This document shows positions 1 to 41,587 of a DNA stretch of 64,000 bases, one piece after another. Source of the DNA: Sipunculus nudus. Lineage: Eukaryota > Annelida > Sipuncula > Golfingiida > Sipunculidae. Position 1 is the stretch's first letter. Each line of letters begins with the position of its first letter. A model generated the notes under the pieces. It made no database searches, was not told the origin of the DNA, and worked only from the letters and a program-made list of their open reading frames with translations. Where the stretch lies: positions 24,359,956-24,423,955 of the forward strand of contig CM049312.1 of the NCBI GenBank assembly GCA_026874595.1, given 5' to 3'. Made by a program: the position numbers and the translations under genes.

Positions 1-2628
1 TTTTGGACATTGAAGGAGTCTAATTATGTCGTTTATATTAAAATACTGTAGACAAAATGTGTTAAAATTGGATAATTGGTCACCATAATCTATACATTAC
101 TTTTAGAAAGTAGCAGCATTATGTATATGTGATTTTGATTGAACGATTTTGCCCTTTATTTTGATATTCATGTTCACAAACCGCCAGTGTTGTGTAGCCA
201 GGGAAACCTTCTGCGTCCCATTGGGTCATTTCTGTGGGTAATTTTAGGAATATGTTTTATTTCTGTGGTGATTTCGCCGTAAGCAAAGAATAAGAAAAGT
301 ATAGGCAAAGCGTAAGCAAAGGGATTTTTGTCTTCATAAGTGCTTCTTGTCACCATTTTCTAAAGAAAAAATGTATTATTGGACTTTGCGGTAATCTAAT
401 TATGTCAAAAATATTACAACACTGTAGTAAAATTGTGTTAAAATTGGAAAATGGGTCCCCAAAATTCATATATAACTTTTAGAGAGTACAAGATTTATAT
501 ATTTGTAATTTTGATTGATTGGATTTTATCTGTATTTTGATATTCATGTTCACTCTCTGGCACTGTTGTGTAGCCAGGGAACCCTTCTGCGCCCCTACCG
601 GTCATAGATGAGTGTATTTTAGGAAAGTTTTTCATTTCTGTGGTGATTTCGACGTAACTAAAGAATAAGCAAAACATAAGCAAAGTGTAAGCAAAGGGGT
701 TCTCTCTTCATCAAAACTTCTACGGTCCATTTCCTGAAGAAATAATGTTATAGGACTTTCTGTGAGTCTTATTATTTCAGAAATAGTAAAATACTGTAGG
801 TATATTGTGTTAAAATAAGAAAATGGGTCTAAAAATCAATTAATTACTTTTAGAAAGGCAGTATTATACATTTGTGAAATTCACTGAACGAGTTTTTCCT
901 TTATTTTTTTATTCCTGTTCACTCTCCGGCACGGTTGTGTAGCCAGGGAACTCTTCTGTGTTCCTTTGGGTCATATATGTGTGTATATTTAGGAAAATGA
1001 TTCATTTCTGTGCTGATTTCGACAAAAGCAAAGAATAAGCAAAGCAAAAGCACAGTGAAGGCAAAGCTACTCTCTCTTCATCAAAACTTCTAGGGTCCAT
1101 TTCCTGAAGAAATAATGTGTTACAGGACTTTCTGTGAGTCTTATTATTTCAGAAATAGTAAAATACTGTAGGTATATTGTGTTAAAATAAGAAAATGGGT
1201 CTAAAAATCAATTAATTACTTTCAGAAAGGCAGAATTATACATTTGTGAAATTCATTGAACGATTTTTCCCTTTATTTTTTTTATTCCTGTTCACTCTCC
1301 GGCACGGTTGTGTAGCCAGGGAACTATTCTGTGTTCCTTTGGGTCATATCTGTGTGTATATTTAGGAAAAAGATTCATTTCTGTGGTGATTTCGACAAAA
1401 GCAAAGAATAAGCAAAGCAATAGCACAGTGTAGGCAAACTACTCTCTCTTCATCAAAACTTCTAGGGTCCATTTCCTGAAGAAATAATGTGTTACAGGAC
1501 TTCCTGTGAGTCTTATTATTTCAGAAATAGTAAATTACTGTAGGTATATTGTGTTAAAATAAGAAAATGGGTCTAAAAATCAATTAATTACTTTTAGAAG
1601 GTAGCAGTGTTATACATTTGTGAAATTCATTGAACGATTTTTCCTTTTATTTTTTTTATTCCTGTTCACTCTCCGGCACGGTTGTGTAGCCAGGGAACAT
1701 TTCTGCGTCCCAATGGGTCATATCTGTGTGTATTTTTAGGAATATGTTTGATTTCTGTGGTGATTTCGCCGTAAGCAAAGAAAAGGCAAAGCAAAGGCAA
1801 AGTGTAAGCAAAGGGATTATGTCTTCATAAATGCTTCTTGGCACCATTTTCTGAAGAAATAATGTTTTATTAGAAATTGCTGGAGTCTAATTATGTCGGA
1901 AATATTAAAATATTGTAGACAAATTGTGTTAAAATTTGAAAACGGGTCACCATAATCCAAAAAAATTACTTTTAGAACCTAGCAGAATTATATATTGTGA
2001 TATTGAATGAACGATTTTGCCCTTTATTTTGATATTCATGTTCACAAACCGGCACTGTTGTGTAGCCAGGGAACTCTTCTGCGTACCTTTGGGTCATATC
2101 TGTGTGTATTTTTAGGAATATGTTTGATTTCTGTGCTGATTTCGCCGTGAGCAAAGAAAAGGCAAAGCAAAGGCAAAGTGTAAGCAAAGGGTTCTGTCTT
2201 CACAAATGCTTTTTGGCACCATTTTCTGAAGAAAAAATGTGCTATTAGACTTTCTGGGGGTCTAATTATTTCAGAAATAGTAAAATACTGTAGGTATATT
2301 GTGTGAAATTAGTAAATAGGCCTAAAAATCAATACATTACTTTTAGAAAGTAGGAGTATTACAAATTTGTGAAATTCATTGAACTATCTGTCCCTTTATT
2401 TTTTATTCATGTTCAATCTCCGGCACTGTTGTGTAACCAGGGAACACTTCTGCGTCCGTTTGGGTTATATTTGTGTGTACATTTAGGGAAATGTTTCATT
2501 TCTGTAGTGATTTTGCCATAAGCAAAGAATATGCAAAGCATAGGCGATGTGTAAGCAATGGCATTATGTCTTCAAAAAAGCTTCTTGTCACCATTTTCTG
2601 AAGAAATAATGTATTTTTGGACATTGAA
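1..2628 (+). repeat. HOR unit U0, 7 monomers with undeleted A monomer
   Basis: Register point GGAGTCTAATTATGTCG at 15; the next is at 2629, giving 2614 bp. Monomer order is A0-B-C-D-E-F-G. Its first monomer is full length, whereas the equivalent A monomer that opens units U1 to U7 lacks about 46 bp. It also carries the variant GTCGTTTATATT (others read GTCGGTTATATT), shared with the monomer at 34633 in the right flank. This unit therefore looks like the pre-deletion form of the short HOR. Confidence 0.9.
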
Positions 2629-5600
2629 GGAGTCTAATTATGTCGGTTATATTAAAACACTGTAGACAAAATGTGTTAAAATTGGATAATTGGTCACCAT
2701 AATCTATACATTACTTTTAGAAAGTAGCAGCATTATATATATGTGATTTTGATTGAACGATTTTGCCCTTTATTTTGATATTCATGTTCACAAACCGCCA
2801 GTGTTGTGTAGCCAGGGAAACCTTCTGCGTCCCATTGGGTCATTTCTGTGGGTAATTTTAGGAATATGTTTTATTTCGCGTAAGCAAAGGGATTTTTGTC
2901 TTCATAAGTGCTTCTTGTCACCATTTTCTAAAGAAAAAATGTATTATTGGACTTTGCGGTAATCTAATTATGTCAAAAATATTACAACACTGTAGTTAAA
3001 TTGTGTTAAAATTGGAAAATGGGTCCCCAAAATTCATATATAACTTTTAGAGAGTAAAAGATTTATATATTTGTAATTTTGATTGATTGGATTTTATCTG
3101 TATTTTGATATTCATGTTCACTCTCTGGCACTGTTGTGTAGCCAGGGAACCCTTCTGCGCCCCTACGGGTCATAGATGAGTGTATTTTAGGAAAGTTTTT
3201 CATTTCTGTGGTGATTTCGACGTAACTAAAGAATAAGCAAAACATAAGCAAAGTGTAAGCAAAGGGGTTCTCTCTTCATCAAAACTTCTACGGTCCATTT
3301 CCTGAAGAAATAATGTTATAGGACTTTCTGTGAGTCTTATTATTTCAGAAATAGTAAAATACTGTAGGTATATTGTGTTAAAATAAGAAAATGGGTCTAA
3401 AAATCAATTAATTACTTTTAGAAAGGCAGTATTATACATTTGTGAAATTCACTGAACGAGTTTTTCCTTTATTTTTTTATTCCTGTTCACTCTCCGGCAC
3501 GGTTGTGTAGCCAGGGAACTCTTCTGTGTTCCTTTGGGTCATATCTGTGTGTATATTTAGGAAAATGATTCATTTCTGTGGTGATTTCGACAAAAGCAAA
3601 GAATAAGCAAAGCAATAGCACAGTGAAGGCAAAGCTACTCTCTCTTCATCAAAACTTCTAGGGTCCATTTCCTGAAGAAATAATGTGTTACAGGACTTTC
3701 TGTGAGTCTTATTATTTCAGAAATAGTAAAATACTGTAGGTATATTGTGTTAAAATAAGAAAATGGGTCTAAAAATCAATTAATTACTTTCAGAAAGGCA
3801 GAATTATACATTTGTGAAATTCATTGAACGATTTTTCCCTTTATTTTTTTTATTCCTGTTCACTCTCCGGCACGGTTGTGTAGCCAGGGAACTATTCTGT
3901 GTTCCTTTGGGTCATATCTGTGTGTATATTTAGGAAAATGATTCATTTCTGTGGTGATTTCGACAAAAGCAAAGAATAAGCAAAGCAATAGCACAGTGTA
4001 GGCAAACTACTCTCTCTTCATCAAAACTTCTAGGGTCCATTTCCTGAAGAAATAATGTGTTACAGGACTTTCTGTGAGTCTTATTATTTCAGAAATAGTA
4101 AATTACTGTAGGTATATTGTGTTAAAATAAGAAAATGGGTCTAAAAATCAATTAATTACTTTTAGAAGGTAGCAGTGTTATACATTTGTGAAATTCATTG
4201 AACGATTTTTCCTTTTATTTTTTTTATTCCTGTTCACTCTCCGGCACGGTTGTGTAGCCAGGGAACATTTCTGCGTCCCAATGGGTCATATCTGTGTGTA
4301 TTTTTAGGAATATGTTTGATTTCTGTGGTGATTTCGCCGTAAGCAAAGAAAAGGCAAAGCAAAGGCAAAGTGTAAGCAAAGGGATTATGTCTTCATAAAT
4401 GCTTCTTGGCACCATTTTCTGAAGAAATAATGTTTTATTAGAAATTGCTGGAGTCTAATTATGTCGGAAATATTAAAATATTGTAGACAAATTGTGTTAA
4501 AATTGGAAAACGGGTCACCATAATCCAAAAAAATTACTTTAAGAACCTAGCAGAATTATATATTGTGATATTGAATGAACGATTTTGCCCTTTATTTTGA
4601 TATTCATGTTCACAAACCGGCACTGTTGTGTAGCCAGGGAACTCTTCTGCGTACCTTTGGGTCATATCTGTGTGTATTTTTAGGAATATGTTTGATTTCT
4701 GTGCTGATTTCGCCGTAAGCAAAGAAAAGGCAAAGCAAAGGCAAAGTGTAAGCAAAGGGTTCTGTCTTCACAAATGCTTTTTGGCACCATTTTCTGAAGA
4801 AAAAATGTGCTATTAGACTTTCTGGGGGTCTAATTATTTCAGAAATAGTAAAATACTGTAGGTATATTGTGTGAAATTAGTAAATAGGCCTAAAAATCAA
4901 TACATTACTTTTAGAAAGTAGGAGTATTACAAATTTGTGAAATTCATTGAACTATCTGTCCCTTTATTTTTTATTCATGTTCAATCTCCGGCACTGTTGT
5001 GTAACCAGGGAACACTTCTGCGTCCGTTTGGGTTATATTTGTGTGTACATTTAGGGAAATGTTTCATTTCTGTAGTGATTTTGCCATAAGCAAAGAATAT
5101 GCAAAGCATAGGCGATGTGTAAGCAATGGCATTATGTCTTCAAAAAAGCTTCTTGTCACCATTTTCTGAAGAAATAATGTATTTTTGGACATTGAAGGAG
5201 TCTAATTATGTCGGTTATATTAAAATACTGTAGACAAAATGTGTTAAAATTGGATAATTGGTCACCATAATCTATACATTACTTTTAGAAAGTAGCAGCA
5301 TTATGTATATGTGATTTTGATTGAACGATTTTGCCCTTTATTTTGATATTCATGTTCACAAACCGCCAGTGTTGTGTAGCCAGGGAAACCTTCTGCGTCC
5401 CATTGGGTCATTTCTGTGGGTAATTTTAGGAATATGTTTTATTTCTGTGGTGATTTCGCCGTAAGCAAAGAATAAGAAAAGTATAGGCAAAGCGTAAGCA
5501 AAGGGATTTTGTCTTCATAAGTGCTTCTTGTCACCATTTTCTGAAGAAAAAATGTATTATTGGACTTTGCGGTAATCTAATTATGTCAAAAAATATTACA

Positions 5601-6318
5601 ACACTGTAGTTAAATTGTGTTAAAATTGGAAAATGGGTCCCCAAAATTCATATATAATTTTAGAGAGTACAAGATTTATATATTTGTAATTTTGATTGAT
5701 TGGATTTTATGTGTATTTTGATATTCATGTTCACTCTCTGGCACTGTTGTGTAGCCAGGGAACCCTTCTGCGCTCCTACCGGTCATAGATGAGTGTATTT
5801 TAGGAAAGTTTTTCATTTCTGTGGTGATTTCGACGTAACTCAAGAATAAGCAAAACATAAGCAAAGTGTAAGCAAAGGGGTTCTATCTTCATCAAAACTT
5901 CTACGGTCCATTTCCTGAAGAAATAATGTTATAGGACTTTCTGTGAGTCTTATTATTTCAGAAATAGTAAAATACTGTAGGTATATTGTGTTAAAATAAG
6001 AAAATGGGTGTAAAAACCAATTAATTACTTTTAGAAAGTAGCAGTGTTATACATTTGTGAAATTCATTGAACGATTTTTCCCTTTATTTTTTTTATTCCT
6101 GTTCACTCTCCGGCACGGTTGTGTAGGCAGGGAACTCTTCTGTGTTCCTTTGGGTCAAATCTGTGTGTATATCTAGGAAAATGTTTCATTTCTGTACTGA
6201 TTTGGCTGTAAGCAAAGAAAAAGCAAAGAATAGGCAAAGTGTTAGCAAAGGGATTATGTCTTCATATATGCTTCTTGTCTCCATTTTCTGAAGAAATAAT
6301 GTATTTTTGAACATTGAA
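2629..6318 (+). repeat. HOR unit U1, 10-monomer long form (3690 bp)
   Basis: Monomer order is A(deleted)-B-C-D-E-F-G-A'-B'-H, with conserved-box positions near 2804, 3134, 3503, 3876, 4250, 4626, 4997, 5372, 5747 and 6119. The 330-bp spacing between A and B shows the deletion in A. A' and B' are full-length relatives of A and B (B' reads GCGCTCCTACCGG where B reads GCGCCCCTACCGG). H carries GTGTAGGCAGGG in place of GTGTAGCCAGGG. The A'-B'-H triplet of about 1123 bp is what separates the long from the short unit. A private change reads CCCCTACGGG near 3172. Confidence 0.93.
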
Positions 6319-9300
6319 GGAGTCTAATTATGTCGGTTATATTAAAACACTGTAGACAAAATGTGTTAAAATTGGATAATTGGTCACCATAATCTATACA
6401 TTACTTTTAGAAAGTAGCAGCATTATATATATGTGATTTTGATTGAACGATTTTGCCCTTTATTTTGATATTCATGTTCACAAACCGCCAGTGTTGTGTA
6501 GCCAGGGAAACCTTCTGCGTCCCATTGGGTCATTTCTGTGGGTAATTTTAGGAATATGTTTTATTTCGCGTAAGCAAAGGGATTTTTGTCTTCATAAGTG
6601 CTTCTTGTCACCATTTTCTAAAGAAAAAATGTATTATTGGACTTTGCGGTAATCTAATTATGTCAAAAATATTACAACACTGTAGTTAAATTGTGTTAAA
6701 ATTGGAAAATGGGTCCCCAAAATTCATATATAACTTTTAGAGAGTAAAAGATTTATATATTTGTAATTTTGATTGATTGGATTTTATCTGTATTTGGATA
6801 TTCATGTTCACTCTCTGGCACTGTTGTGTAGCCAGGGAACCCTTCTGCGCCCCTACCGGTCATAGATGAGTGTATTTTAGGAAAGTTTTTCATTTCTGTG
6901 GTGATTTCGACGTAACTAAAGAATAAGCAAAACATAAGCAAAGTGTAAGCAAAGGGGTTCTCTCTTCATCAAAACTTCTACGGTCCATTTCCTGAAGAAA
7001 TAATGTTATAGGACTTTCTGTGAGTCTTATTATTTCAGAAATAGTAAAATACTGTAGGTATATTGTGTTAAAATAAGAAAATGGGTCTAAAAATCAATTA
7101 ATTACTTTTAGAAAGGCAGTATTATACATTTGTGAAATTCACTGAACGAGTTTTTCCTTTATTTTTTTATTCCTGTTCACTCTCCGGCACGGTTGTGTAG
7201 CCAGGGAACTCTTCTGTGTTCCTTTGGGTCATATCTGTGTGTATATTTAGGAAAATGATTCATTTCTGTGGTGATTTCGACAAAAGCAAAGAATAAGCAA
7301 AGCAATAGCACAGTGAAGGCAAAGCTACTCTCTCTTCATCAAAACTTCTAGGGTCCATTTCCTGAAGAAATAATGTGTTACAGGACTTTCTGTGAGTCTT
7401 ATTATTTCAGAAATAGTAAAATACTGTAGGTATATTGTGTTAAAATAAGAAAATGGGTCTAAAAATCAATTAATTACTTTCAGAAAGGCAGAATTATACA
7501 TTTGTGAAATTCATTGAACGATTTTTCCCTTTATTTTTTTTATTCCTGTTCACTCTCCGGCACGGTTGTGTAGCCAGGGAACTATTCTGTGTTCCTTTGG
7601 GTCATATCTGTGTGTATATTTAGGAAAATGATTCATTTCTGTGGTGATTTCGACAAAAGCAAAGAATAAGCAAAGCAATAGCACAGTGTAGGCAAACTAC
7701 TCTCTCTTCATCAAAACTTCTAGGGTCCATTTCCTGAAGAAATAATGTGTTACAGGACTTTCTGTGAGTCTTATTATTTCAGAAATAGTAAATTACTGTA
7801 GGTATATTGTGTTAAAATAAGAAAATGGGTCTAAAAATCAATTAATTACTTTTAGAAGGTAGCAGTGTTATACATTTGTGAAATTCATTGAACGATTTTT
7901 CCTTTTATTTTTTTTATTCCTGTTCACTCTCCGGCACGGTTGTGTAGCCAGGGAACATTTCTGCGTCCCAATGGGTCATATCTGTGTGTATTTTTAGGAA
8001 TATGTTTGATTTCTGTGGTGATTTCGCCGTAAGCAAAGAAAAGGCAAAGCAAAGGCAAAGTGTAAGCAAAGGGATTATGTCTTCATAAATGCTTCTTGGC
8101 ACCATTTTCTGAAGAAATAATGTTTTATTAGAAATTGCTGGAGTCTAATTATGTCGGAAATATTAAAATATTGTAGACAAATTGTGTTAAAATTGGAAAA
8201 CGGGTCACCATAATCCAAAAAAATTACTTTAAGAACCTAGCAGAATTATATATTGTGATATTGAATGAACGATTTTGCCCTTTATTTTGATATTCATGTT
8301 CACAAACCGGCACTGTTGTGTAGCCAGGGAACTCTTCTGCGTACCTTTGGGTCATATCTGTGTGTATTTTTAGGAATATGTTTGATTTCTGTGCTGATTT
8401 CGCCGTAAGCAAAGAAAAGGCAAAGCAAAGGCAAAGTGTAAGCAAAGGATTCTGTCTTCACAAATGCTTTTTGGCACCATTTTCTGAAGAAAAAATGTGC
8501 TATTAGACTTTCTGGGGGTCTAATTATTTCAGAAATAGTAAAATACTGTAGGTATATTGTGTGAAATTAGTAAATAGGCCTAAAAATCAATACATTACTT
8601 TTAGAAAGTAGGAGTATTACAAATTTGTGAAATTCATTGAACTATCTGTCCCTTTATTTTTTATTCATGTTCAATCTCCGGCACTGTTGTGTAACCAGGG
8701 AACACTTCTGCGTCCGTTTGGGTTATATTTGTGTGTACATTTAGGGAAATGTTTCATTTCTGTAGTGATTTTGCCATAAGCAAAGAATATGCAAAGCATA
8801 GGCGATGTGTAAGCAATGGCATTATGTCTTCAAAAAAGCTTCTTGTCACCATTTTCTGAAGAAATAATGTATTTTTGGACATTGAAGGAGTCTAATTATG
8901 TCGGTTATATTAAAATACTGTAGACAAAATGTGTTAAAATTGGATAATTGGTCACCATAATCTATACATTACTTTTAGAAAGTAGCAGCATTATGTATAT
9001 GTGATTTTGATTGAACGATTTTGCCCTTTATTTTGATATTCATGTTCACAAACCGCCAGTGTTGTGTAGCCAGGGAAACCTTCTGCGTCCCATTGGGTCA
9101 TTTCTGTGGGTAATTTTAGGAATATGTTTTATTTCTGTGGTGATTTCGCCGTAAGCAAAGAATAAGAAAAGTATAGGCAAAGCGTAAGCAAAGGGATTTT
9201 GTCTTCATAAGTGCTTCTTGTCACCATTTTCTGAAGAAAAAATGTATTATTGGACTTTGCGGTAATCTAATTATGTCAAAAAATATTACAACACTGTAGT

Positions 9301-10008
9301 TAAATTGTGTTAAAATTGGAAAATGGGTCCCCAAAATTCATATATAATTTTAGAGAGTACAAGATTTATATATTTGTAATTTTGATTGATTGGATTTTAT
9401 GTGTATTTTGATATTCATGTTCACTCTCTGGCACTGTTGTGTAGCCAGGGAACCCTTCTGCGCTCCTACCGGTCATAGATGAGTGTATTTTAGGAAAGTT
9501 TTTCATTTCTGTGGTGATTTCGACGTAACTCAAGAATAAGCAAAACATAAGCAAAGTGTAAGCAAAGGGGTTCTATCTTCATCAAAACTTCTACGGTCCA
9601 TTTCCTGAAGAAATAATGTTATAGGACTTTCTGTGAGTCTTATTATTTCAGAAATAGTAAAATACTGTAGGTATATTGTGTTAAAATAAGAAAATGGGTG
9701 TAAAAACCAATTAATTACTTTTAGAAAGTAGCAGTGTTATACATTTGTGAAATTCATTGAACGATTTTTCCCTTTATTTTTTTTATTCCTGTTCACTCTC
9801 CGGCACGGTTGTGTAGGCAGGGAACTCTTCTGTGTTCCTTTGGGTCAAATCTGTGTGTATATCTAGGAAAATGTTTCATTTCTGTACTGATTTGGCTGTA
9901 AGCAAAGAAAAAGCAAAGAATAGGCAAAGTGTTAGCAAAGGGATTATGTCTTCATATATGCTTCTTGTCTCCATTTTCTGAAGAAATAATGTATTTTTGA
10001 ACATTGAA
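6319..10008 (+). repeat. HOR unit U2, 10-monomer long form (3690 bp)
   Basis: Same ten monomer types in the same order as U1 and exactly the same length. I saw only isolated base differences between the two, for example TGTATTTGGATA near 6791 where other units read TGTATTTTGATA. The lack of indels over 3.7 kb indicates recent amplification or ongoing gene conversion. Confidence 0.93.
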
Positions 10009-19954: not shown

Positions 19955-22900
19955 GGAGTCTAATTATGTCGGTTATATTAAAACACTGTAGACAAAATGT
20001 GTTAAAATTGGATAATTGGTCACCATAATCTATACATTACTTTTAGAAAGTAGCAGCATTATATATATGTGATTTTGATTGAACGATTTTGCCCTTTATT
20101 TTGATATTCATGTTCACAAACCGCCAGTGTTGTGTAGCCAGGGAAACCTTCTGCGTCCCATTGGGTCATTTCTGTGGGTAATTTTAGGAATATGTTTTAT
20201 TTCGCCTAAGCAAAGGGATTTTTGTCTTCATAAGTGCTTCTTGTCACCATTTTCTAAAGAAAAAATGTATTATTGGACTTTGCGGTAATCTAATTATGTC
20301 AAAAATATTACAACACTGTAGTTAAATTGTGTTAAAATTGGAAAATGGGTCCCCAAAATTCATATATAACTTTTAGAGAGTACAAGATTTATATATTTGT
20401 AATTTTGATTGATTGGATTTTATCTGTATTTTGATATTCATGTTCACTCTCTGGCACTGTTGTGTAGCCAGGGAACCCTTCTGCGCCCCTACCGGTCATA
20501 GATGAGTGTATTTTAGGAAAGTTTTTCATTTCTGTGGTGATTTCGACGTAACTAAAGAATAAGCAAAACATAAGCAAAGTGTAAGCAAAGGGGTTCTCTC
20601 TTCATCAAAACTTCTACGGTCCATTTCCTGAAGAAATAATGTTATAGGACTTTCTGTGAGTCTTATTATTTCAGAAATAGTAAAATACTGTAGGTATATT
20701 GTGTTAAAATAAGAAAATGGGTCTAAAAATCAATTAATTACTTTTAGAAAGGCAGTATTATACATTTGTGAAATTCACTGAACGAGTTTTTCCTTTATTT
20801 TTTTATTCCTGTTCACTCTCCGGCACGGTTGTGTAGCCAGGGAACTCTTCTGTGTTCCTTTGGGTCATATCTGTGTGTATATTTAGGAAAATGATTCATT
20901 TCTGTGGTGATTTCGACAAAAGCAAAGAATAAGCAAAGCAATAGCACAGTGAAGGCAAAGCTACTCTCTCTTCATCAAAACTTCTAGGGTCCATTTCCTG
21001 AAGAAATAATGTGTTTCAGGACTTTCTGTGAGTCTTATTATTTCAGAAATAGTAAAATACTGTAGGTATATTGTGTTAAAATAAGAAAATGGGTCTAAAA
21101 ATCAATTAATTACTTTCAGAAAGGCAGAATTATACATTTGTGAAATTCATTGAACGATTTTTCCCTTTATTTTTTTTATTCCTGTTCACTCTCCGGCACG
21201 GTTGTGTAGCCAGGGAACTATTCTGTGTTCCTTTGGGTCATATCTGTGTGTATATTTAGGAAAATGATTCATTTCTGTGGTGATTTCGACGAAAGCAAAG
21301 AATAAGCAAAGCAATAGCACAGTGTAGGCAAACTACTCTCTCTTCATCAAAACTTCTAGGGTCCATTTCCTGAAGAAATAATGTGTTACAGGACTTTCTG
21401 TGAGTCTTATTATTTCAGAAATAGTAAATTACTGTAGGTATATTGTGTTAAAATAAGAAAATGGGTCTAAAAATCAATTAATTACTTTTAGAAGGTAGCA
21501 GTGTTATACATTTGTGAAATTCATTGAACGATTTTTCCTTTTATTTTTTTTATTCCTGTTCACTCTCCGGCACGGTTGTGTAGCCAGGGAACATTTCTGC
21601 GTCCCAATGGGTCATATCTGTGTGTATTTTTAGGAATATGTTTGATTTCTGTGGTGATTTCGCCGTAAGCAAAGAAAAGGCAAAGCAAAGGCAAAGTGTA
21701 AGCAAAGGGATTATGTCTTCATAAATGCTTCTTGGCACCATTTTCTGAAGAAATAATGTTTTATTAGAAATTGCTGGAGTCTAATTATGTCGGAAATATT
21801 AAAATATTGTAGACAAATTGTGTTAAAATTGGAAAACGGGTCACCATAATCCAAAAAAATTACTTTTAGAACCTAGCAGAATTATATATTGTGATATTGA
21901 ATGAACGATTTTGCCCTTTATTTTGATATTCATGTTCACAAACCGGCACTGTTGTGTAGCCAGGGAACTCTTCTGCGTACCTTTGGGTCATATCTGTGTG
22001 TATTTTTAGGAATATGTTTGATTTCTGTGCTGATTTCGCCGTAAGCAAAGAAAAGGCAAAGCAAAGGCAAAGTGTAAGCAAAGGGTTCTGTCTTCACAAA
22101 TGCTTTTTGGCACCATTTTCTGAAGAAAAAATGTGCTATTAGACTTTCTGGGGGTCTAATTATTTCAGAAATAGTAAAATACTGTAGGTATATTGTGTGA
22201 AATTAGTAAATAGGCCTAAAAATCAATAAATTACTTTTAGAAAGTAGGAGTATTACAAATTTGTGAAATTCATTGAACTTTCTGTCCCTTTATTTTTTAT
22301 TCATGTTCAATCTCCGGCACTGTTGTGTAACCAGGGAACACTTCTGCGTCCGTTTGGGTTATATTTGTGTGTACATTTAGGGAAATGTTTCATTTCTGTA
22401 GTGATTTTGCCATAAGCAAAGAATATGCAAAGCATAGGCGATGTGTAAGCAATGGCATTATGTCTTCAAAAAAGCTTCTTGTCACCATTTTCTGAAGAAA
22501 TAATGTATTTTTGGACATTGAAGGAGTCTAATTATGTCGGTTATATTAAAATACTGTAGACAAAATGTGTTAAAATTGGATAATTGGTCACCTTAATCTA
22601 TACATTACTTTTAGAAAGTAGCAGCATTATGTATATGTGATTTTGATTGAACGATTTTGCCCTTTATTTTGATATTCATGTTCACAAACCGCCAGTGTTG
22701 TGTAGCCAGGGAAACCTTCTGCGTCCCATTGGGTCATTTCTGTGGGTAATTTTAGGAATATGTTTTATTTCTGTGGTGATTTCGCCGTAAGCAAAGAATA
22801 AGAAAAGTATAGGCAAAGCGTAAGCAAAGGGATTTTGTCTTCATAAGTGCTTCTTGTCACCATTTTCTGAAGAAAAAATGTATTATTGGACTTTGCGGTA

Positions 22901-23644
22901 ATCTAATTATGTCAAAAAATATTACAACACTGTAGTTAAATTGTGTTAAAATTGGAAAATGGGTCCCCAAAATTCATATATAATTTTAGAGAGTACAAGA
23001 TTTATATATTTGTAATTTTGATTGATTGGATTTTATGTGTATTTTGATATTCATGTTCACTCTCTGGCACTGTTGTGTAGCCAGGGAACCCTTCTGCGCT
23101 CCTACCGGTCATAGATGAGTGTATCTTAGGAAAGTTTTTCATTTCTGTGGTGATTTCGACGTAACTCAAGAATAAGCAAAACATAAGCAAAGTGTAAGCA
23201 AAGGGGTTCTATCTTCATCAAAACTTATACGGTCCATTTCCTGAAGAAATAATGTTATAGGACTTTCTGTGAGTCTTATTATTTCAGAAATAGTAAAATA
23301 CTGTAGGTATATTGTGTTTAAATAAGAAAATGGGTGTAAAAACCAATTAATTACTTTTAGAAAGTAGCAGTGTTATACATTTGTGAAATTCATTGAACGA
23401 TTTTTCCCTTTATTTTTTTTATTCCTGTTCACTCTCCGGCACGGTTGTGTAGGCAGGGAACTCTTCTGTGTTCCTTTGGGTCAAATCTGTGTGTATATCT
23501 AGGAAAATGTTTCATTTCTGTACTGATTTGGCTGTAAGCAAAGAAAAAGCAAAGAATAGGCAAAGTGTTAGCAAAGGGATTATGTCTTCATATATGCTTC
23601 TTGTCTCCATTTTCTGAAGAAATAATGTATTTTTGAACATTGAA
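19955..23644 (+). repeat. HOR unit U6, 10-monomer long form (3690 bp)
   Basis: Ten monomers in the U1 order. It shares three derived sites with U5 (near 22589, 23222 and 23314). It also shares TTTCGCCTAAGC in the deleted A monomer (near 20200) and AATCAATAAATTAC in G (near 22224) with U7. It is thus a link between U5 and U7, as expected if homogenisation acts between neighbours. Confidence 0.93.
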
Positions 23645-26355
23645 GGAGTCTAATTATGTCGGTTATATTAAAACACTGTAGACAAAATGTGTTAAAATTG
23701 GATAATTGGTCACCATAATCTATACATTACTTTTAGAAAGTAGCAGCATTATATATATGTGATTTTGATTGAACGATTTTGCCCTTTATTTTGATATTCA
23801 TGTTCACAAACCGCCAGTGTTGTGTAGCCAGGGAAACCTTCTGCGTCCCATTGGGTCATTTCTGTGGGTAATTTTAGGAATATGTTTTATTTCGCCTAAG
23901 CAAAGGGATTTTTGTCTTCATAAGTGCTTCTTGTCACCATTTTCTAAAGAAAAAATGTATTATTGGACTTTGCGGTAATCTAATTATGTCAAAAATATTA
24001 CAACACTGTAGTTACATTGTGTTAAAATTGGAAAATGGGTCCCCAAAATTCATATATAACTTTTAGAGAGTACAAGATTTATATATTTGTAATTTTGATT
24101 GATTTGATTTTATCTGTATTTTGATATTCATGTTCACTCTCTGGCACTGTTGTGTAGCCAGGGAACCCTTCTGCGCCCCTACCGGTCATAGATGAGTGTA
24201 TTTTAGGAAAGTTTTTCATTTCTGTGGTGATTTCGACGTAACTAAAGAATAAGCAAAACATAAGCAAAGTGTAAGCAAAGGGGTTCTCTCTTCATCAAAA
24301 CTTCTACGGTCCATTTCCTGAAGAAATAATGTTATAGGACTTTCTGTGAGTCTTATTATTTCAGAAATAGTAAAATACTGTAGGTATATTGTGTTAAAAT
24401 AAGAAAATGGGTCTAAAAATCAATTAATTACTTTTAGAAAGGCAGTATTATACATTTGTGAAATTCACTGAACGAGTTTTTCCTTTATTTTTTTATTCCT
24501 GTTCACTCTCCGGCACGGTTGTGTAGCCAGGGAACTCTTCTGTGTTCCTTTGGGTCATATCTGTGTGTATATTTAGGAAAATGATTCATTTCTGTGGTGA
24601 TTTCGACAAAAGCAAAGAATAAGCAAAGCAATAGCACAGTGAAGGCAAAGCTACTCTCTCTTCATCAAAACTTCTAGGGTCCATTTCCTGAAGAAATAAT
24701 GTGTTACAGGACTTTCTGTGAGTCTTATTATTTCAGAAATAGTAAAATACTGTAGGTATATTGTGTTAAAATAAGAAAATGGGTCTAAAAATCAATTAAT
24801 TACTTTTAGAAAGGCAGAATTATACATTTGTGAAATTCATTGAACGATTTTTCCCTTTATTTTTTTATTCCTGTTCACTCTCCGGCACGGTTGTGTAGCC
24901 AGGGAACTATTCTGTGTTCCTTTGGGTCATATCTGTGTGTATATTTAGGAAAATGATTCATTTCTGTGGTGATTTCGACAAAAGCAAAGAATAAGCAAAG
25001 CAATAGCACAGTGTAGGCAAACTACTCTCTCTTCATCAAAACTTCTAGGGTCCATTTCCTGAAGAAATAATGTGTTACAGGACTTTCTGTGAGTCTTATT
25101 ATTTCAGAAATAGTAAATTACTGTAGGTATATTGTGTTAAAATAAGAAAATGGGTCTAAAAATCAATTAATTACTTTTAGAAGGTAGCAGTGTTATACAT
25201 TTGTGAAATTCATTGAACGATTTTTCCTTTTATTTTTTTTATTCCTGTTCACTCTCCGGCACGGTTGTGTAGCCAGGGAACATTTCTGCGTCCCAATGGG
25301 TCATATCTGTGTGTATTTTTAGGAATATGTTTGATTTCTGTGGTGATTTCGCCGTAAGCAAAGAAAAGGCAAAGCAAAGGCAAAGTGTAAGCAAAGGGAT
25401 TATGTCTTCATAAATGCTTCTTGGCACCATTTTCTGAAGAAATAATGTTTTATTAGAAATTGCTGGAGTCTAATTATGTCGGAAATATTAAAATATTGTA
25501 GACAAATTGTGTTAAAATTGGAAAACGGGTCACCATAATCCAAAAAAATTACTTTTAGAACCTAGCAGAATTATATATTGTGATATTGAATGAACGATTT
25601 TGCCCTTTATTTTGATATTCATGTTCACAAACCGGCACTGTTGTGTAGCCAGGGAACTCTTCTGCGTACCTTTGGGTCATATCTGTGTGTATTTTTAGGA
25701 ATATGTTTGATTTCTGTGCTGATTTCGCCGTAAGCAAAGAAAAGGCAAAGCAAAGGCAAAGTGTAAGCAAAGGGTTCTGTCTTCACAAATGCTTTTTGGC
25801 ACTATTTTCTGAAGAAAAAATGTGCTATTAGACTTTCTGGGGGTCTAATTATTTCAGAAATAGTAAAATACTGTAGGTATATTGTGTGAAATTAGTAAAT
25901 AGGCCTAAAAATCAATAAATTACTTTTAGAAAGTAGGAGTATTACAAATTTGTGAAATTCATTGAACTATCTGTCCCTTTATTTTTTATTCATGTTCAAT
26001 CTCCGGCACTGTTGTGTAACCAGGGAACACTTCTGCGTCCGTTTGGGTTATATTTGTGTGTACATTTAGGGAAATGTTTCATTTCTGTAGTGATTTTGCC
26101 ATAAGCAAAGAATATGCAAAGCATAGGCGATGTGTAAGCAATGGCATTATGTCTTCAAAAAAGCTTCTTGTCACCATTTTCTGTAGAAATAATGTATTTT
26201 TGGACATTGAAGGAGTCTAATTATGTCGGTTATATTAAAATACTGTAGACAAAATGTGTTAAAATTGGATAATTGGTCACCATAATCTATACATTACTTT
26301 TAGAAAGTAGCAGCATTATGTATATGTGATTTTGATTGAACGATTTTGCCCTTTA
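23645..26355 (+). repeat. HOR unit U7, left part, interrupted by insertion
   Basis: Monomers A(deleted) to G are complete (23645-26211). A' then begins at 26212 and is cut after CCCTTTA at 26355, where the Helitron-like element begins. The unit resumes at 30288. TTTCGCCTAAGC near 23890 and AATCAATAAATTAC near 25911 tie it to U6. Confidence 0.93.
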
Positions 26356-26357
26356 TT

Positions 26358-26385
26358 GCTTGCCGGAATCAAAGATTTCGGCAAG
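26358..26385 (+). repeat. 5' terminal inverted repeat and hairpin of the insertion
   Basis: GCTTGCCGGAA (26358-26368) is the exact reverse complement of 30256-30266 near the other end. Immediately after it, TTTCGGCAAG (26376-26385) is a near-perfect inverted copy separated by seven bases, giving a 10-bp stem with one G:T position. The 5' tip can therefore pair either locally or with the 3' end. Confidence 0.85.
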
Positions 26386-26404
26386 CATATTGGTCAGTTG
26401 CGTA

Positions 26405-26437
26405 TGTCTGTTTGTCTGTCTGTCTGTTTGTTTGTCT
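26405..26437 (+). repeat. TGTC/TTTG microsatellite near the 5' end
   Basis: A run built from TGTC and TTTG steps, 20 bp downstream of the 5' hairpin. Related short tracts recur near 28407, 29103 and 30093 inside the element. Confidence 0.85.
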
Positions 26438-26534
26438 ACACTCTCCTGGCCACAATTTTGCCACAATCACCTTGAAACTTACAGGGATGATGAAAAACAT
26501 AATTTCTAGGTGCCCTATTGTTTTTGGTTAAAAT

Positions 26535-26559
26535 AGGTCAAAGGTCAAGGTCAAGGTCA
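26535..26559 (+). promoter_or_regulatory. Cluster of four AGGTCA half-sites
   Basis: AGGTCA occurs at 26535-26540, 26542-26547, 26548-26553 and 26554-26559. The first pair is a direct repeat with one-base spacing (DR1), a form known to bind RXR-, HNF4- and COUP-TF-type nuclear receptors. TCAAGGTCA within it matches the extended monomer site used by ERR/FTZ-F1-type receptors. Binding is not shown; the match may simply be a property of this repeat family. Confidence 0.6.
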
Positions 26560-26825
26560 CGACAGGTATGGTTAACGGTTTTTGCACTATAACTTCGCCA
26601 TAAATAGGCTTATCCACTTCTGCAATAGCTCATTTTTTTCGTCATCACCTGGCCTTTCTTTTGACATGTAACTTACATAAATTTGCTGTTACCATGGTTA
26701 CGCAATTTTGGGGAGAATTCATGGAATTTCCTGATATTTTTCAAATTTGCAGCAATCATACTGATTCTGAGATATTTTATGTAACACAAGAATATCTCGA
26801 AATTGTTTTTTCAGATTTTGGAAAT

Positions 26826-26846
26826 GGCCGCCAGGGGGCGTTGCAG
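26826..26846 (+). promoter_or_regulatory. CTCF-like motif 1
   Basis: GGCCGCCAGGGGGCGTTGC matches the widely used CTCF core consensus TGGCCACCAGGGGGCGCTA at most positions, including the CCAGGGGGCG centre. A TATCTCGAAA segment lies about 35 bp upstream, as it does at four of the five sites. Confidence 0.5.
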
Positions 26847-27146
26847 ATGAAAAAACATGAAAATTTGTTTTGGTGCTATACCTCCAGAACTATTAAACAT
26901 TGGGCCATTTCCATCACAGCAACTTCAACTGGGGTCCATGGGCTTATTTTTGCGCATAGGTGCCAAAGTGCGCTATTGCCAGATTTCTCTATTTTTGGGG
27001 TAAAACTTTTGAATTTTGAAAATATGCAGTTTTCAGCTTCTAACTCTGTCAGTTTTCATGCTGGAGAGGTCAATTTTTTTGCATCTTGTAGCCCTTGGTG
27101 AGCTCTCGGTGATCCAATCAAAAATCTTGCAAAATCTCGCACCGTT

Positions 27147-27161
27147 TCTCGTCAAACGAGA
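27147..27161. repeat. Short palindrome TCTCGT-CAA-ACGAGA
   Basis: A perfect 6-bp inverted repeat with a 3-base loop. The same or a one-base variant recurs at 27749-27763, 28047-28060, 28195-28209 and 28343-28357, once per 148-bp repeat, and in degenerate form near 27604 and 28835. Confidence 0.8.
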
Positions 27162-27281
27162 GTCTTCGAGATTTCATTTAATATGACCTACAGGTTGCAT
27201 TTTTTTAACAATAGCTTTGAAATTGATATATTTTGTGTTATTTATAAATATCTCGAAATCAGTTTTTCATTTTTTGAAAAT

Positions 27282-27300
27282 AGCCACCAGGGGGCGTGGT
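27282..27300 (+). promoter_or_regulatory. CTCF-like motif 2
   Basis: AGCCACCAGGGGGCGTGGTA has the intact CCACCAGGGGGCG core, with mismatches only towards the 3' end. It lies 457-458 bp after motif 1 in an equivalent repeat context (TATCTCGAAATC upstream). Confidence 0.5.
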
Positions 27301-27599
27301 ACCTGAAACACTGTAACATATCATTTTTCTGCAATATCGAAAATAATTTTAAACATGGCACAATTTTTATCGCTGTATCTTAAACTAGGAACATTGGCTT
27401 ATTCCACCGCACATGTAGCTTTGTGCTGCCGTTACCATGGTTACCAAATTTGTGGGTTAAACTTGACGATCTGAAAATATGCAGTTTTTGGCTTTTATCT
27501 CGGTTAATATTTATGTTTCAAGGGTCTAGTTTTTTGCATAAGGCTGCTTCCCCTTGGTTCTAAGTCATTCAATTGCAAGTCTCGTCAAATTTAGCTCGG

Positions 27600-28400
27600 T
27601 TTATCGTCAAACGAGAAAAAACGAGATTTCACAGAAATGCTTATAACTCGGCGACTTTTACAGCTACACAGGTCTAGTTTTCGGCATTTCATAACATAAG
27701 ACCAGCTTGACACGCCAGAAAAGAAATCAGGCCAAATCTCGCACCATATCTCGTCAAGCGAGAAAAAAACGAGATATCATGGAAATGCTTATAACTAGGC
27801 GACTTTTACAGCTACTCAGGTCTAGTTTTTGGCATTTGGTAACATTTGGCCAATTTGACATAGTAAAACTGCATTACTTGGCGAAATCTCGCACTACATC
27901 TGGTCAAATGTGGAAAAACGAGATTTCACAGAAATGCATATAAGTCGGCGACTTTCACGGCTAGACAGGTCTAGTTTTTGGCATTCATTAACATTTGGAT
28001 GGCTTGACATGACAAACCTGCAAGACTGGCCAAATCTCGCACCATATCTCGTCAAACGATAAAAAAGGAGATTTCACAGAAATGCTAATAACTCGGCAAC
28101 TTTTACTGCTAGACAGATGTAGTTTTCGCAATTTCATAACATTTAGAGAGTTTGATATGACAAATCTACAAGACTGGCCAAATCCTGCACCATATCTCGT
28201 CAAACGAGAAAACATGAGAGTACACGGAAATGCTTATAACTCGGCGACTTTTACAGCTAGACGGATCTAGTTTTCGCCATTTCGTAACGTTTGGCCGTCT
28301 TGACATAATAAAACTGCTCGTCTTGCCAAATCTCGTACTATATCTCGTCAAGCGAGAAAAAAACATGATTTCACGTAAATGCTGATAACACGGCGACTTT
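27600..28400 (+). repeat. Internal tandem repeat of about 148 bp, 5-6 copies
   Basis: The segment AAATGCTTATAACTCGGCGA and variants starts at 27635, 27783, 27932, 28080, 28228 and 28378, giving steps of 148, 149, 148, 148 and 150 bp. Each copy carries AGCTA followed by AGGTCTAGTTTT or a variant, a CAAATCTCGCACCATATCTC stretch and the TCTCGT palindrome. Copies differ by many substitutions, so this array is older than the HOR amplification around it. Short open frames in it shift between copies and I do not consider them genes. Confidence 0.9.
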
Positions 28401-28403
28401 TGC

Positions 28404-28700
28404 AGCTAGTTTGTTTGTTTGTCTGCACTCTCCTGGCCACAATTTTGCCACAATCACCTTGAAACTTTCAGAGATGATGGACAACCAAAATTCTAGGTGC
28501 CCTATTTTTTTTGCTCCAAATAGGTCAAAGGTCAAGGTCGAGGTCATTAAAGTCTACAAAACGGGTTTTTCTTCATATCTTTGTAACTATTAGTCGTATC
28601 TACTTGAACTATAGCTCATTTTAATCGTCATCCAATGGCCTTTCTTCTGGTGGGTAGCTGACTTAAATTTTCCGTTTCCATGGTAACACATTTTCGGGGA
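28404..28700 (+). repeat. Internal direct repeat, copy 2
   Basis: Diverged second copy of 26405-26725, about 2.0 kb downstream. It starts with the TTTG/TGTC tract, then CACTCTCCTGGCCACAATTT, the AGGTCA cluster and the CCATGGT segment. Confidence 0.85.
28522..28546 (+). promoter_or_regulatory. Second AGGTCA half-site cluster
   Basis: AGGTCA at 28522-28527 and 28529-28534 (DR1 spacing), then AGGTCG (28535-28540) and AGGTCA (28541-28546). The four-site layout of the first cluster is kept, with one base changed in the third site. Confidence 0.55.
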
Positions 28701-29265
28701 AAAATATCATATTTGAAAATCAATGGACTAATTTGTCAGTTTTAATGCTAGAGAGGTCTAGATTTTTGCATGAGGTAGCATTCGTTTAGTACTACATGAT
28801 TTTATTAAAAGTCTGGCAATATCTCGTAAGATATCTCATCAAACGAAATATTTCGAGATTTCATTAATCTTGCCCTGGAGGCCACAGTTTTGCAGGAATT
28901 TTTTTAAAACTGATATATTTCAAGTCTTACCCTAGTATCTCGAATTTGTTTTTTTTTTTTGGATAGGACCGCAACATATCGTATTTTGGCCATATCTCCA
29001 AAATTATAAGCCTCAATTACATAAACTATAGCTTATTTTCTTTCTCTGAGTTTTCTCCATAACCTGGTGTAGTCATCTGGTCACAATTTTGTGTCACCTT
29101 GTCAGTGTGTCTGTCTGTTTGTCAGTTGTCCTCCAATTTGCCTGCTTGCTCTTGCGTCTCACATTTAGCATTCTACAGGCCACAGTTTTAAAAGAATCCT
29201 TTTGAAACTATTACATCTGAAGTCTTACACTAATATCTCGAAATCAATTTTTCATTTCCGGATAT

Positions 29266-29284
29266 GGCCGCTAGGCGGCGCTGA
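29266..29284 (+). promoter_or_regulatory. CTCF-like motif 3
   Basis: TGGCCGCTAGGCGGCGCTGA agrees with the CTCF consensus at the GGCCRC start and the GGCGCT end, with CTAGG in the centre. It lies in a copy of the 330-bp internal tandem repeat. Confidence 0.45.
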
Positions 29285-29595
29285 ACTCGAACCTCTCCCA
29301 ACATATCATGCTTTGGCAATATCTCCAAAACTATAAACCTCAGTTACATAAACTGTAGCTTTTTCTTCCGTTGAGTCTTCTCCATAATCTGAAGTAGTCA
29401 TCTGGACTCAATCTTGAGTCACTTTGTCAGTGTTTTCGTCTGTTTTTCAGTTGTCCTCAAATTCGCCTGCTTGTTGGCTCTTGCGTCTCACATATAGCAT
29501 TCTATAGGCCACAGTTTTGACGGAATCCTTTTGAAAGTATTACATCTTATGTCTTACACTAATATCTAGAAATAAATTTTTCATTTTCCGGATAT

Positions 29596-29614
29596 GGCCA
29601 CCAGTGGGCGCTGC
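29596..29614 (+). promoter_or_regulatory. CTCF-like motif 4
   Basis: TGGCCACCAGTGGGCGCTGC differs from the 19-bp CTCF consensus at only two positions by eye. It is the best match of the five and lies 330 bp after motif 3. Confidence 0.5.
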
Positions 29615-29927
29615 ACACGACCCTCACACACATACCATTGTATTGGCCATATCTCTACACCCAAAGCCTCAGTTACATAAGCTATCGCTTATTTTCTTCC
29701 TTTGAGTTTTTTCCATAACCTGATTAAGGCATCTGGTTTCAATCTTCTGTCACTTTGTCAGTGTGTCCATCTGTTTGTCCGTTATCCTAAAAGTCGCCTG
29801 CTTGCTGGTTCTTACGCCTTACATATAGCATTCTACAGGCCACAGCTTTGACGGAATCCTTTTGAAACTGGGACATCTCATGTCAGACACTTATAATACG
29901 AAACGCATTTGTCGTCTTGGGAATATG

Positions 29928-29946
29928 TCTGCTAGAGGGCGCTACA
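29928..29946 (+). promoter_or_regulatory. CTCF-like motif 5
   Basis: TCTGCTAGAGGGCGCTACAG keeps the AGGGCGCTA 3' half of the consensus; the 5' half is degenerate. It lies 332 bp after motif 4. Confidence 0.4.
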
Positions 29947-30255
29947 GTCGAGCCTCCCAAGTATATCATTAATTCGCCATACCTCCAAAACTATAAATCT
30001 AAATTACATAAATTATAACTCATTTTCTTCCTTTGAATCTTCTCAATCACTAGGTTATGTCATCTGGTGTCAATCTTGTCTCACAAAGTCACTATGTCTG
30101 TCTGTTCGTCTTTTGTTGTCAGCTTTGCTTGCCTGTTCTTTTGTCTTATATGTCATTCTAAGGGCCACATATTCTCAGCATTGTCCCTGAGAGTCATTCC
30201 ATTAATAGAAAACCGACCATATGTTCTGTCTGTCCGTCTGTGTTTCACTTCCGAT

Positions 30256-30287
30256 TTCCGGCAAGCGTTCGACCTATGGTCGTCTAG
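30256..30287 (+). repeat. 3' end of the insertion: inverted repeat, hairpin, CTAG
   Basis: TTCCGGCAAGC (30256-30266) pairs with the 5' tip. It is followed by the hairpin CGACC-TAT-GGTCG (30270-30282) and then TCTAG, with T next in the host satellite. A short GC-rich hairpin a few bases before CTRR at the 3' end is the known termination signal of Helitrons. Confidence 0.82.
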
Positions 30288-31264
30288 TTTTGATATTCAT
30301 GTTCACAAACCGCCAGTGTTGTGTAGCCAGGGAAACCTTCTGCGTCCCATTGGGTCATTTCTGTGGGTAATTTTAGGAATATGTTTTATTTCTGTGGTGA
30401 TTTCGCCGTAAGCAAAGAATAAGAAAAGTATAGGCAAAGCGTAAGCAAAGGGATTTTGTCTTCATAAGTGCTTCTTGTCACCATTTTCTGAAGAAAAAAT
30501 GTATTATTGGACTTTGCGGTAATCTAATTATGTCAAAAAAATTACAACACTGTAGTTAAATTGTGTTAAAATTGGAAAATGGGTCCCCAAAATTCATATA
30601 TAATTTTAGAGAGTACAAGATTTATATATTTGTAATTTTGATTGATTGGATTTTATGTGTATTTTGATATTCATGTTCACTCTCTGGCACTGTTGTGTAG
30701 CCAGGGAACCCTTCTGCGCTCCTACCGGTCATAGATGAGTGTATTTTAGGAAAGTTTTTCATTTCTGTGGTGATTTCGACGTAACTCAAGAATAAGCAAA
30801 ACATAAGCAAAGTGTAAGCAAAGGGGTTCTATCTTCATCAAAACTTATACGGTCCATTTCCTGAAGAAATAATGTTATAGGACTTTCTGTGAGTCTTATT
30901 ATTTCAGAAATAGTAAAATACTGTAGGTATATTGTGTTAAAATAAGAAAATGGGTGTAAAAACCAATTAATTACTTTTAGAAAGTAGCAGTGTTAAACAT
31001 TTGTGAAATTCATTGAACGATTTTTCCCTTTATTTTTTTTATTTCTGTTCACTCTCCGGCACGGTTGTGTAGGCAGGGAACACTTCTGTGTTCCTTTGGG
31101 TCAAATCTGTGTGTATATCTAGGAAAATGTTTCATTTCTGTACTGATTTGGCTGTAAGCAAAGAAAAAGCAAAGAATAGGCAAAGTGTTAGCAAAGGGAT
31201 TATGTCTTCATATATGCTTCTTGTCTCCATTTTCTGAAGAAATAATGTATTTTTGAACATTGAA
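30288..31264 (+). repeat. HOR unit U7, right part (rest of A', then B', H)
   Basis: Resumes inside the same A' monomer cut at 26355 and continues through B' (box near 30693) and H (near 31065). AAAACTTATACGG near 30842 is the derived variant shared with U5 and U6, confirming that both sides belong to one unit. This is the last unit with the canonical HOR order. Confidence 0.92.
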
Positions 31265-41400: not shown

Positions 41401-41587
41401 CTATATTGTGTCAAAATTAGAAATTGGGTCTAAAAGTCTATACATTACTTTTAAAAAGTAGCCGTATTATACATTTGTGCATAACATTGAACGATTTTTC
41501 CCTTAATTTTTCTTTATTTCAGTTCACTCTCCGACACTGTTGTGTAGCCAGGGAACACTTCTGCGTCCCAATGGGTCATATCTGTGT
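38465..41587 (+). repeat. Diverged monomers, including the TTATTTAGCC subfamily
   Basis: Boxes near 38545, 38919, 39293, 39666, 40039, 40413, 40787, 41165 and 41540. Three of these (38545, 39293, 39666) read TTATTTAGCC in place of TTGTGTAGCC. The stretch from about 40960 to 41587 parallels 33100-33740, but the following monomer is an E/F fusion. Confidence 0.88.

What the first reader, a model, noticed from the sequence alone, without database searches (positions are those of the whole stretch)
1..31264. Higher-order satellite repeat with two alternating unit lengths
Units of 2567 bp (7 monomers) and about 3690 bp (10 monomers) alternate as S, L, L, S, L, L, L. The only structural difference is an A'-B'-H triplet of about 1123 bp. 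Multi-monomer HORs are well known in primate alpha satellite but described in few invertebrates. A fixed ten-type unit with an optional three-monomer cassette is a striking organisation, and it suggests repeated unequal exchange in monomer register.
Basis: seen in the sequence. Interest (0 to 1): 0.75.

Follow-up and report, generated by a model that had tools for sequence, protein, structure and literature searches.

The report
Satellite repeat with two unit lengths
A repeated non-coding DNA block on one chromosome of an unnamed animal (probably a mollusc) is built from long composite units of ten or seven copies; the shorter unit was made from the longer by a mismatched exchange, the same process known from human centromere repeats.

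Summary
Seven complete units run S-L-L-S-L-L-L from 312 to 23896 (2567-2568 and 3689-3691 bp). An eighth, ten-monomer unit (23897-31560) is split by a 3.9-kb Helentron-like transposon. They sit inside a 74.8-kb array of ~374-bp monomers that extends beyond both window ends.

The mechanism is readable. In both S units the last monomer is a chimera: monomer 7 on the left, monomer 10 on the right of the same 38-bp interval. It carries a base seen only in core monomer 7 and a 47-bp deletion seen only in core monomer 10. So S came from L by an in-register exchange that removed 1,123 bp. Four-gamete violations show further exchange; the middle units are nearly identical and the edges have diverged.

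This is ordinary satellite biology, well resolved. An array on contig C13 obeys the same rule: 51 of 51 marker spacings under 10 kb are whole monomers. The family (about 16,600 motif hits) forms arrays both interstitially and near chromosome ends. Closest parallels: human D17Z1 and D5Z2. No centromere function is shown. New member of a known kind.

The parts
1..64000 (+). The window lies inside a 74.8-kb array of ~374-bp monomers (window coordinates -7155 to 67661), broken in the window by one 3.9-kb transposon insertion
   Evidence: 194 nhmmer profile hits over the window plus 40 kb upstream and 20 kb downstream
312..2879 (+). U1, S unit (7 monomers, 2568 bp)
2880..6569 (+). U2, L unit (10 monomers, 3690 bp)
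6570..10259 (+). U3, L unit (3690 bp)
10260..12826 (+). U4, S unit (2567 bp)
12827..16515 (+). U5, L unit (3689 bp)
16516..20206 (+). U6, L unit (3691 bp); carries both U2/U3-like and U7-like variants
20207..23896 (+). U7, L unit (3690 bp)
23897..31560 (+). U8, ten-monomer unit without the 47-bp deletion, interrupted by a transposon; taken as the ancestral form of L, at the edge of the core
2551..2877 (+). Chimeric last monomer of U1: monomer-7 states up to 2620, monomer-10 states from 2658, then the 47-bp deletion
12498..12824 (+). Chimeric last monomer of U4: same breakpoint interval (12567-12605)
5119..6241 (+). The three-monomer stretch (1,123 bp; positions 7-8-9 in U2) by which L exceeds S
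26358..30287 (+). 3.93-kb non-autonomous Helentron (HINE)-like insertion splitting monomer 7 of U8
31562..48798 (+). Older part of the array; its first part (32310-35303) repeats the type series T10-T13-T14-T15-T16-T17-T18-T19 also found left of the core

Best explanation
A satellite array grew by repeated exchange between misaligned copies. An older array of ~374-bp monomers (mean pairwise identity 81%) produced a ten-monomer unit; an undeleted form survives as U8 (shown). A 47-bp deletion then arose in monomer 10, and this form was amplified into a compact block (shown by its presence in U1-U7 and absence in U8; order inferred). Inside the block, an exchange between monomer 7 and monomer 10, three monomers apart in register, removed 1,123 bp and made the seven-monomer S unit (chimeric junction shown; one event followed by copying is inferred from the shared breakpoint). 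Continuing exchange homogenises the middle while the edges gather private mutations (pattern shown, cause inferred). Whether each step was crossover, gene conversion, single-strand annealing or replication-based cannot be told. No coding or centromere function is shown; the array most likely behaves as non-coding heterochromatin shaped by recombination (inferred).
For: Chimera: the S last monomer matches monomer 7 at 8 of 8 substitution sites up to 2620 and monomer 10 at 2 of 2 sites from 2658, plus the 47-bp deletion, in both S units. It has an A found in core monomer 7 but in 0 of 9 flanking T18 monomers, together with the deletion unique to core monomer 10. Inter-unit exchange: 7 of 15 pairs of informative sites show all four gametes. 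Homogenisation: U2-U5 differ by 1-4 substitutions pairwise; private substitutions are U1 8, U2 1, U3 2, U4 0, U5 1, U6 5, U7 4, U8 16. Layering: both sides of the core carry the same series of types. Generality: on C13, 60 copies of an unrelated junction marker give 59 spacings; 51 are under 10 kb and 51 of these 51 are whole monomers plus 62 bp within 0.05 monomer, from 1 to 18 monomers.
Against: No raw reads or second haplotype were available. The simplest copy history, a duplicated S-L-L block, is not supported: U1 and U4 differ at 9 sites while U4 and U5 differ at 1, so the spread of S needs conversion or further exchange. Two independent S events in the same interval are not excluded (38 of about 326 bp, roughly 12% by chance if breakpoints were uniform; my estimate). 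Some changes are out of register (47-bp deletion; 1,218-bp unit). The four-gamete pairs should be read with care, since the U8 row used there was made by joining its two flanks.
Confidence: 0.88

Rival explanations
1. S is the older unit and L arose from it by inserting or duplicating three monomers.
For: Monomers 8 and 10 resemble 1 and 7 (98% and 97%), as a duplication would leave.
Against: The S terminal monomer joins a state unique to core monomer 7 with a deletion unique to core monomer 10, so both parents existed first. An undeleted ten-monomer unit exists at the edge (U8). Both 7-like and 10-like monomers already occur in the older flanks.
Confidence: 0.05
2. The S/L mixture is an assembly artefact (collapsed, duplicated or mis-joined copies, or a switch between haplotypes).
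For: U1-U7 are 99.45-99.96% identical, which is hard to assemble, and no reads were available.
Against: Each unit has a private substitution or gap; the two S junctions are true chimeras at one site, not random joins; the same register rule holds in another chromosome's array.
Confidence: 0.06
3. The array is the (peri)centromere of this chromosome, and unit turnover is driven by centromere activity.
For: Array-specific subfamilies (mean identity 82-93% within C7, C11, C13 and C17, 68-81% between them; C12 79% within), HOR organisation, a youngest core, and, in the capped listings, mostly one interstitial block on each of C6, C7, C11, C12 and C13.
Against: The motif also marks arrays near chromosome ends on C10, C13, C16 and C17, and C13 carries both kinds. 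No place on C1-C4 is among those listed; this is weak, since the lists are capped and that omits a copy that I had read on C13. Only 75 kb here, with a CUB-domain stretch about 9.6 kb from the edge. No CENP-B-box-like core in the array or in 6 of the 8 loci fetched from other arrays (motif recalled).
Confidence: 0.2

Closest known systems
Human alpha satellite D17Z1 (16-mer HOR with 15-, 14-, 13- and 12-mer variants)
   Same: A long unit and a unit three monomers shorter coexist; such size variants are attributed to deletion by unequal exchange (PMC3966626, passages).
   Different: 374-bp instead of 171-bp monomers, eight units instead of a long array, no centromere evidence, no population data. 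Sequences were not compared.
Human alpha satellite D5Z2 (ancestral ten-mer at the array edge, derived four- and six-mers)
   Same: An ancestral ten-monomer unit sits at the edge while shorter deletion derivatives lie inside; primate arrays are most identical at the centre (PMC11062924, passages).
   Different: One exchange and two short units here; scale is tens of kb.
Satellite HORs of invertebrates (Tribolium TCAST HORs; usually dimeric HORs of beetles; crayfish PlSAT75-664)
   Same: Satellite monomers amplified as composite units in an invertebrate (PMC7598501, PMC5615363, PMC7859515; passages).
   Different: Those passages describe dimeric units or complex units with foreign or inverted parts; here seven or ten monomers stand head to tail. 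The primary Tribolium HOR paper was not held.
Cg_HINE non-autonomous Helentrons of Crassostrea gigas
   Same: The 3.9-kb insertion has the left subterminal repeat with its complementary repeat, GTCT-type microsatellite, central tandem repeats, right subterminal repeat and 3' palindrome described there (PMC7492417, passages).
   Different: Sequences were not compared; concerns only the insertion, not the satellite.

Membership tests
Higher-order repeat (HOR) satellite | Diverged tandem monomers amplified together as a composite unit | tested here: met
   75-98% identity between positions within a unit, 98.9-100% between units at like positions
Higher-order repeat (HOR) satellite | Composite unit repeated in tandem | tested here: met
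   7 complete units and one interrupted unit
HOR length variant by unequal exchange (D17Z1 type) | Shorter unit equals longer unit minus whole monomers, with a chimeric monomer at the junction | tested here: met
   1,123 bp = three monomers; 7/10 chimera at 2620-2658 and 12567-12605
HOR length variant by unequal exchange (D17Z1 type) | Variant segregates between haplotypes or individuals | not testable with these tools
   One assembly, no reads
Alpha satellite | ~171-bp monomer | tested here: not met
   374-bp monomer
Alpha satellite | Alpha-satellite sequence | not tested
   No comparison with an alpha-satellite sequence was run
Centromeric satellite | Occupied by CENP-A / kinetochore | not testable with these tools
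   No chromatin data
Centromeric satellite | Present at one site on every chromosome | tested here: inconclusive
   Places listed on 9 of 17 chromosome-sized contigs (C5, C6, C7, C10, C11, C12, C13, C16, C17), two well separated on C7, C12, C13 and C16 (some single hits); most lists are capped
Centromeric satellite | CENP-B-box core NTTCGNNNNANNCGGGN (recalled; not required outside mammals) | tested here: not met
   0 in 74.8 kb and 0 in 6 of the 8 loci fetched from other arrays
HINE (non-autonomous Helentron), for the insertion | Subterminal inverted repeats, microsatellite, central tandem repeats, 3' palindrome | tested here: met
   Read from the sequence at 26358-30287 against the description in PMC7492417; 2,090 genome hits of the 3' end at up to 2 mismatches, control 0
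HINE (non-autonomous Helentron), for the insertion | Mobilised by an autonomous Helentron in the same genome | not tested
   No search for an autonomous partner was run

The most novel reading that the evidence does not exclude
The full pattern known from primate centromeres (a young HOR core inside older layers, edge divergence, register-locked unit variants, ancestral unit kept at the rim) arises here in a small, possibly non-centromeric array of an invertebrate without detectable CENP-B boxes. That would mean HOR formation and layering are generic products of recombination in tandem arrays and need no kinetochore.
Probability: 0.3. Interest if true: 0.55.

Novelty: new member of a known kind. 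Interest (0 to 1): 0.34.

Why it matters
It is a compact, assembled case in which the origin of a HOR length variant can be read base by base: both parental monomers, the chimeric product, an undeleted relative of the ancestor and the homogenisation gradient lie within 32 kb. With the C13 array it offers a small system for asking whether HOR turnover follows the primate rules with or without a centromere. I found no description of this family: 0 papers of the held library contain three probe strings, two of them reverse complements of each other (main texts only), and searches for HORs in bivalves or molluscs listed no multi-monomer case (listings). One bivalve paper does speak of HOR units formed from subrepeats in molluscan satellites (PMC5874043, passages).

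Tried and rejected
Self-BLAST of the array merged and culled alignments and showed few of the S/L pairs, so monomer typing was used instead.

A duplicated S-L-L block was considered as the cause of the order and rejected on unit distances.

The first 17-mer was taken at first as a marker of one large C13 array; counting in fetched loci showed that it matches few C13 monomers and about half of C17 monomers. A degenerate 25-mer replaced it. I took the single C5 and C6 hits for chance, but one search lists further places beside them.

Listings of repeats are incomplete. One search, made with a piece of the window, lists only C13 and not the window itself; one search lists only C17. Searches show the first 100 of 1,909, 16,603 and 2,862 hits. 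One search also omits an exact copy at about C13:17.4008 Mb that is visible, so its order of places cannot be used to show absence. Complete lists: 7 of 7; 35 of 35; 13 of 13; 60 of 60.

CENP-B-box search: nothing. Species identification was not attempted: no eukaryote sequence collection was at hand. Two papers (Tribolium HORs, D17Z1 1986) were not held. One search for bivalve HORs listed unrelated papers.

Full report
SETTING. The window is G000:C7:24359956-24423955 in a 1.43-Gb assembly of 153 contigs. C1-C17 are 61-111 Mb long, C18-C20 under 0.1 Mb and C147 0.56 Mb, so 17 chromosomes are likely. A transposon with the architecture of oyster HINE elements (below) makes a mollusc plausible but does not prove it.

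OBSERVATION. A 374-bp profile matched 167 times in the window and 194 times in the window plus 60 kb of flanks; the array runs from -7155 to 67661 in window coordinates. A 47-bp deletion marks unit ends. Its junction occurs 7 times in the window with 0 expected in shuffles and 7 times in the genome at up to 2 mismatches. Monomer typing gives U1-U7 = S L L S L L L with lengths 2568, 3690, 3690, 2567, 3689, 3691 and 3690.

WHAT LIES BEYOND. The next unit, U8 (23897-31560), is a ten-monomer unit whose monomer 10 lacks the deletion, split by an insertion. To both sides lie older monomers. The series T10, T13, T14, T15, T16, T17, T18, T19 appears left of and into the core (-3055 to 685, with T11 and T12 between T10 and T13; its T19 is the first monomer of U1) and right of it (32310-35303). 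So the core is a young layer inside an older array. Pairwise identity over all 194 hits averages 81%.

HOW S AROSE. At 8 of 8 sites where core monomers 7 and 10 differ by substitution, from the start of the monomer to window 2620, the last monomer of U1 has the monomer-7 state; at the 2 remaining sites (2658, 2737) and at the 47-bp deletion it has the monomer-10 state. U4 is the same, with the switch between 12567 and 12605. A further difference at the first column is a hit-boundary effect and was not counted. Nine of ten T18 monomers outside the core served as outgroup (the tenth is partial and starts too late). All 9 have T where core monomer 7 and S have A, and all 9 profile hits run through the deleted region. 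S therefore holds two derived states from two different parents, which requires recombination and makes L the older form. The product is L minus three monomers, 1,123 bp.

HOMOGENISATION. Among six informative sites in U1-U8, 7 of 15 site pairs show all four combinations, which implies exchange between units. Private substitutions are 8, 1, 2, 0, 1, 5, 4 and 16 for U1 to U8 (the U8 row was made by joining its two flanks and holds one base of the insert). U2-U5 differ by 1-4 substitutions pairwise. Edges diverged and middle uniform is the classic expectation of unequal exchange (recalled).

GENERALITY. The C13 array carries a different marker, a 61-62-bp partial duplication. It occurs 60 times, all on C13. 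Of 59 spacings, 51 are under 10 kb, and 51 of these 51 fit an integer number of monomers plus 62 bp within 0.05 monomer (1 to 18 monomers, most often 6; R = 0.997). The monomer length (374.9) and the 62 bp were set from fetched C13 sequence, not independently. The eight longer spacings were left out of the test; they lie within about 0.05 of an integer too. C17 carries a 750-bp dimeric HOR at the three places read, C12 a unit of about 5.72 kb with about 3.3 kb of other DNA (five hits at that spacing).

FAMILY AND LOCATION. A degenerate 25-mer found 16,603 sites against 4 for the reversed control; at ~375 bp each this is about 6 Mb, an inference. It finds 146 sites in the C7 array where the profile has 194 hits, fragments included. 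Places were listed on C5, C6, C7, C11, C12 and C13 and C17, and, by a related motif only, near the ends of C10, C13 and C16. C13 has both an interstitial block (17.04-17.42 Mb) and a terminal one (70.79-70.92 of 70.94 Mb). Mean identity is 81.6% within C7, 78.7% C7-C13 and 68.5% C7-C17. These are chromosome- or location-specific subfamilies. The two location classes weaken a simple centromere reading. A CUB match (above its curated cut-off) and EGF-like matches (below theirs) lie 9.6-19.3 kb upstream of this array. A small centromere here is still not excluded.

COMPARISON. In human D17Z1 a 16-mer coexists with shorter units, the 13-mer being the commonest of these, attributed to deletion by unequal exchange (PMC3966626, passages read). 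In D5Z2 a ten-monomer ancestor at the array edge gave four- and six-monomer derivatives by monomer deletion, and primate arrays are most identical at the centre; the same paper holds that simple unequal crossover alone does not explain the spread of new HORs (PMC11062924, passages). The present array follows the same pattern, that caveat included. HORs in invertebrates are reported: usually dimeric in beetles, otherwise complex (PMC5615363, passages), Tribolium TCAST HORs (PMC7598501, passages), crayfish (PMC7859515, passages), and a grasshopper title in a reference list (PMC10048060). For molluscs one paper speaks of HOR units built from subrepeats (PMC5874043, passages); no multi-monomer mollusc HOR turned up in the listings, which is weak evidence of absence.

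VERDICT. Real, well resolved, and mechanistically clear; new member of a known kind. The level of interest is modest: a clean natural example, not a surprise.

Noticed in passing
26358-30287: 3.93-kb HINE-like (non-autonomous Helentron) insertion at a T-run: GCTTGCCGG subterminal repeats, GTCT microsatellite, 5.4 central 148-bp repeats, 3' palindrome and CTAG end; 2,090 genome hits of its 3' end, and among the first 100 listed many lie on C1 near 64-67 Mb.
   Followed up: partly
beyond the window, window coordinates about 64577-66448 (L005): 1.87-kb insertion with a DDE_1 match and a sub-threshold Tc5-type HTH match, resembling a pogo/Tigger transposon (relatives of CENP-B, recalled), frame broken.
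   Followed up: partly
41587-45245: 1,218-bp unit in three near-identical copies (98.8-99.2%), about 3.25 monomers, so an out-of-register duplication.
   Followed up: partly
51696-58854 and 59193-62178: Two further local duplications, about 5,990 bp (16 monomers) and about 1,493 bp (4 monomers).
   Followed up: no
monomer ends, e.g. 2880-2890 and 51664-51705: Many monomers end in degenerate 11-bp subrepeats (TAAGCAAAGAA); the 47-bp deletion lies across this region, consistent with slippage between short repeats.
   Followed up: partly
L009 (C12:61895000-61904999): Composite unit of about 5.72 kb: diverged monomers plus about 3.3 kb of other DNA; two copies in the locus and five hits at that spacing on C12.
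   Followed up: partly
L011-L013 (C17) and C10, C13, C16 ends: Location class near chromosome ends; on C17 the three places read between 0.22 and 1.41 Mb are a 750-bp dimeric HOR, one on the + and two on the - strand; the arrays at the other ends were located by a motif only.
   Followed up: partly
window coordinates -39463 to -38173 (L001): Open stretches of 345 and 419 codons in overlapping frames, made of short tandem repeats, 31 kb upstream of the array.
   Followed up: no
L010 (C11:31164000-31168999): Satellite block that switches strand within about 22 bp (+ up to 3984, - from 4007), an inverted junction inside the array.
   Followed up: no
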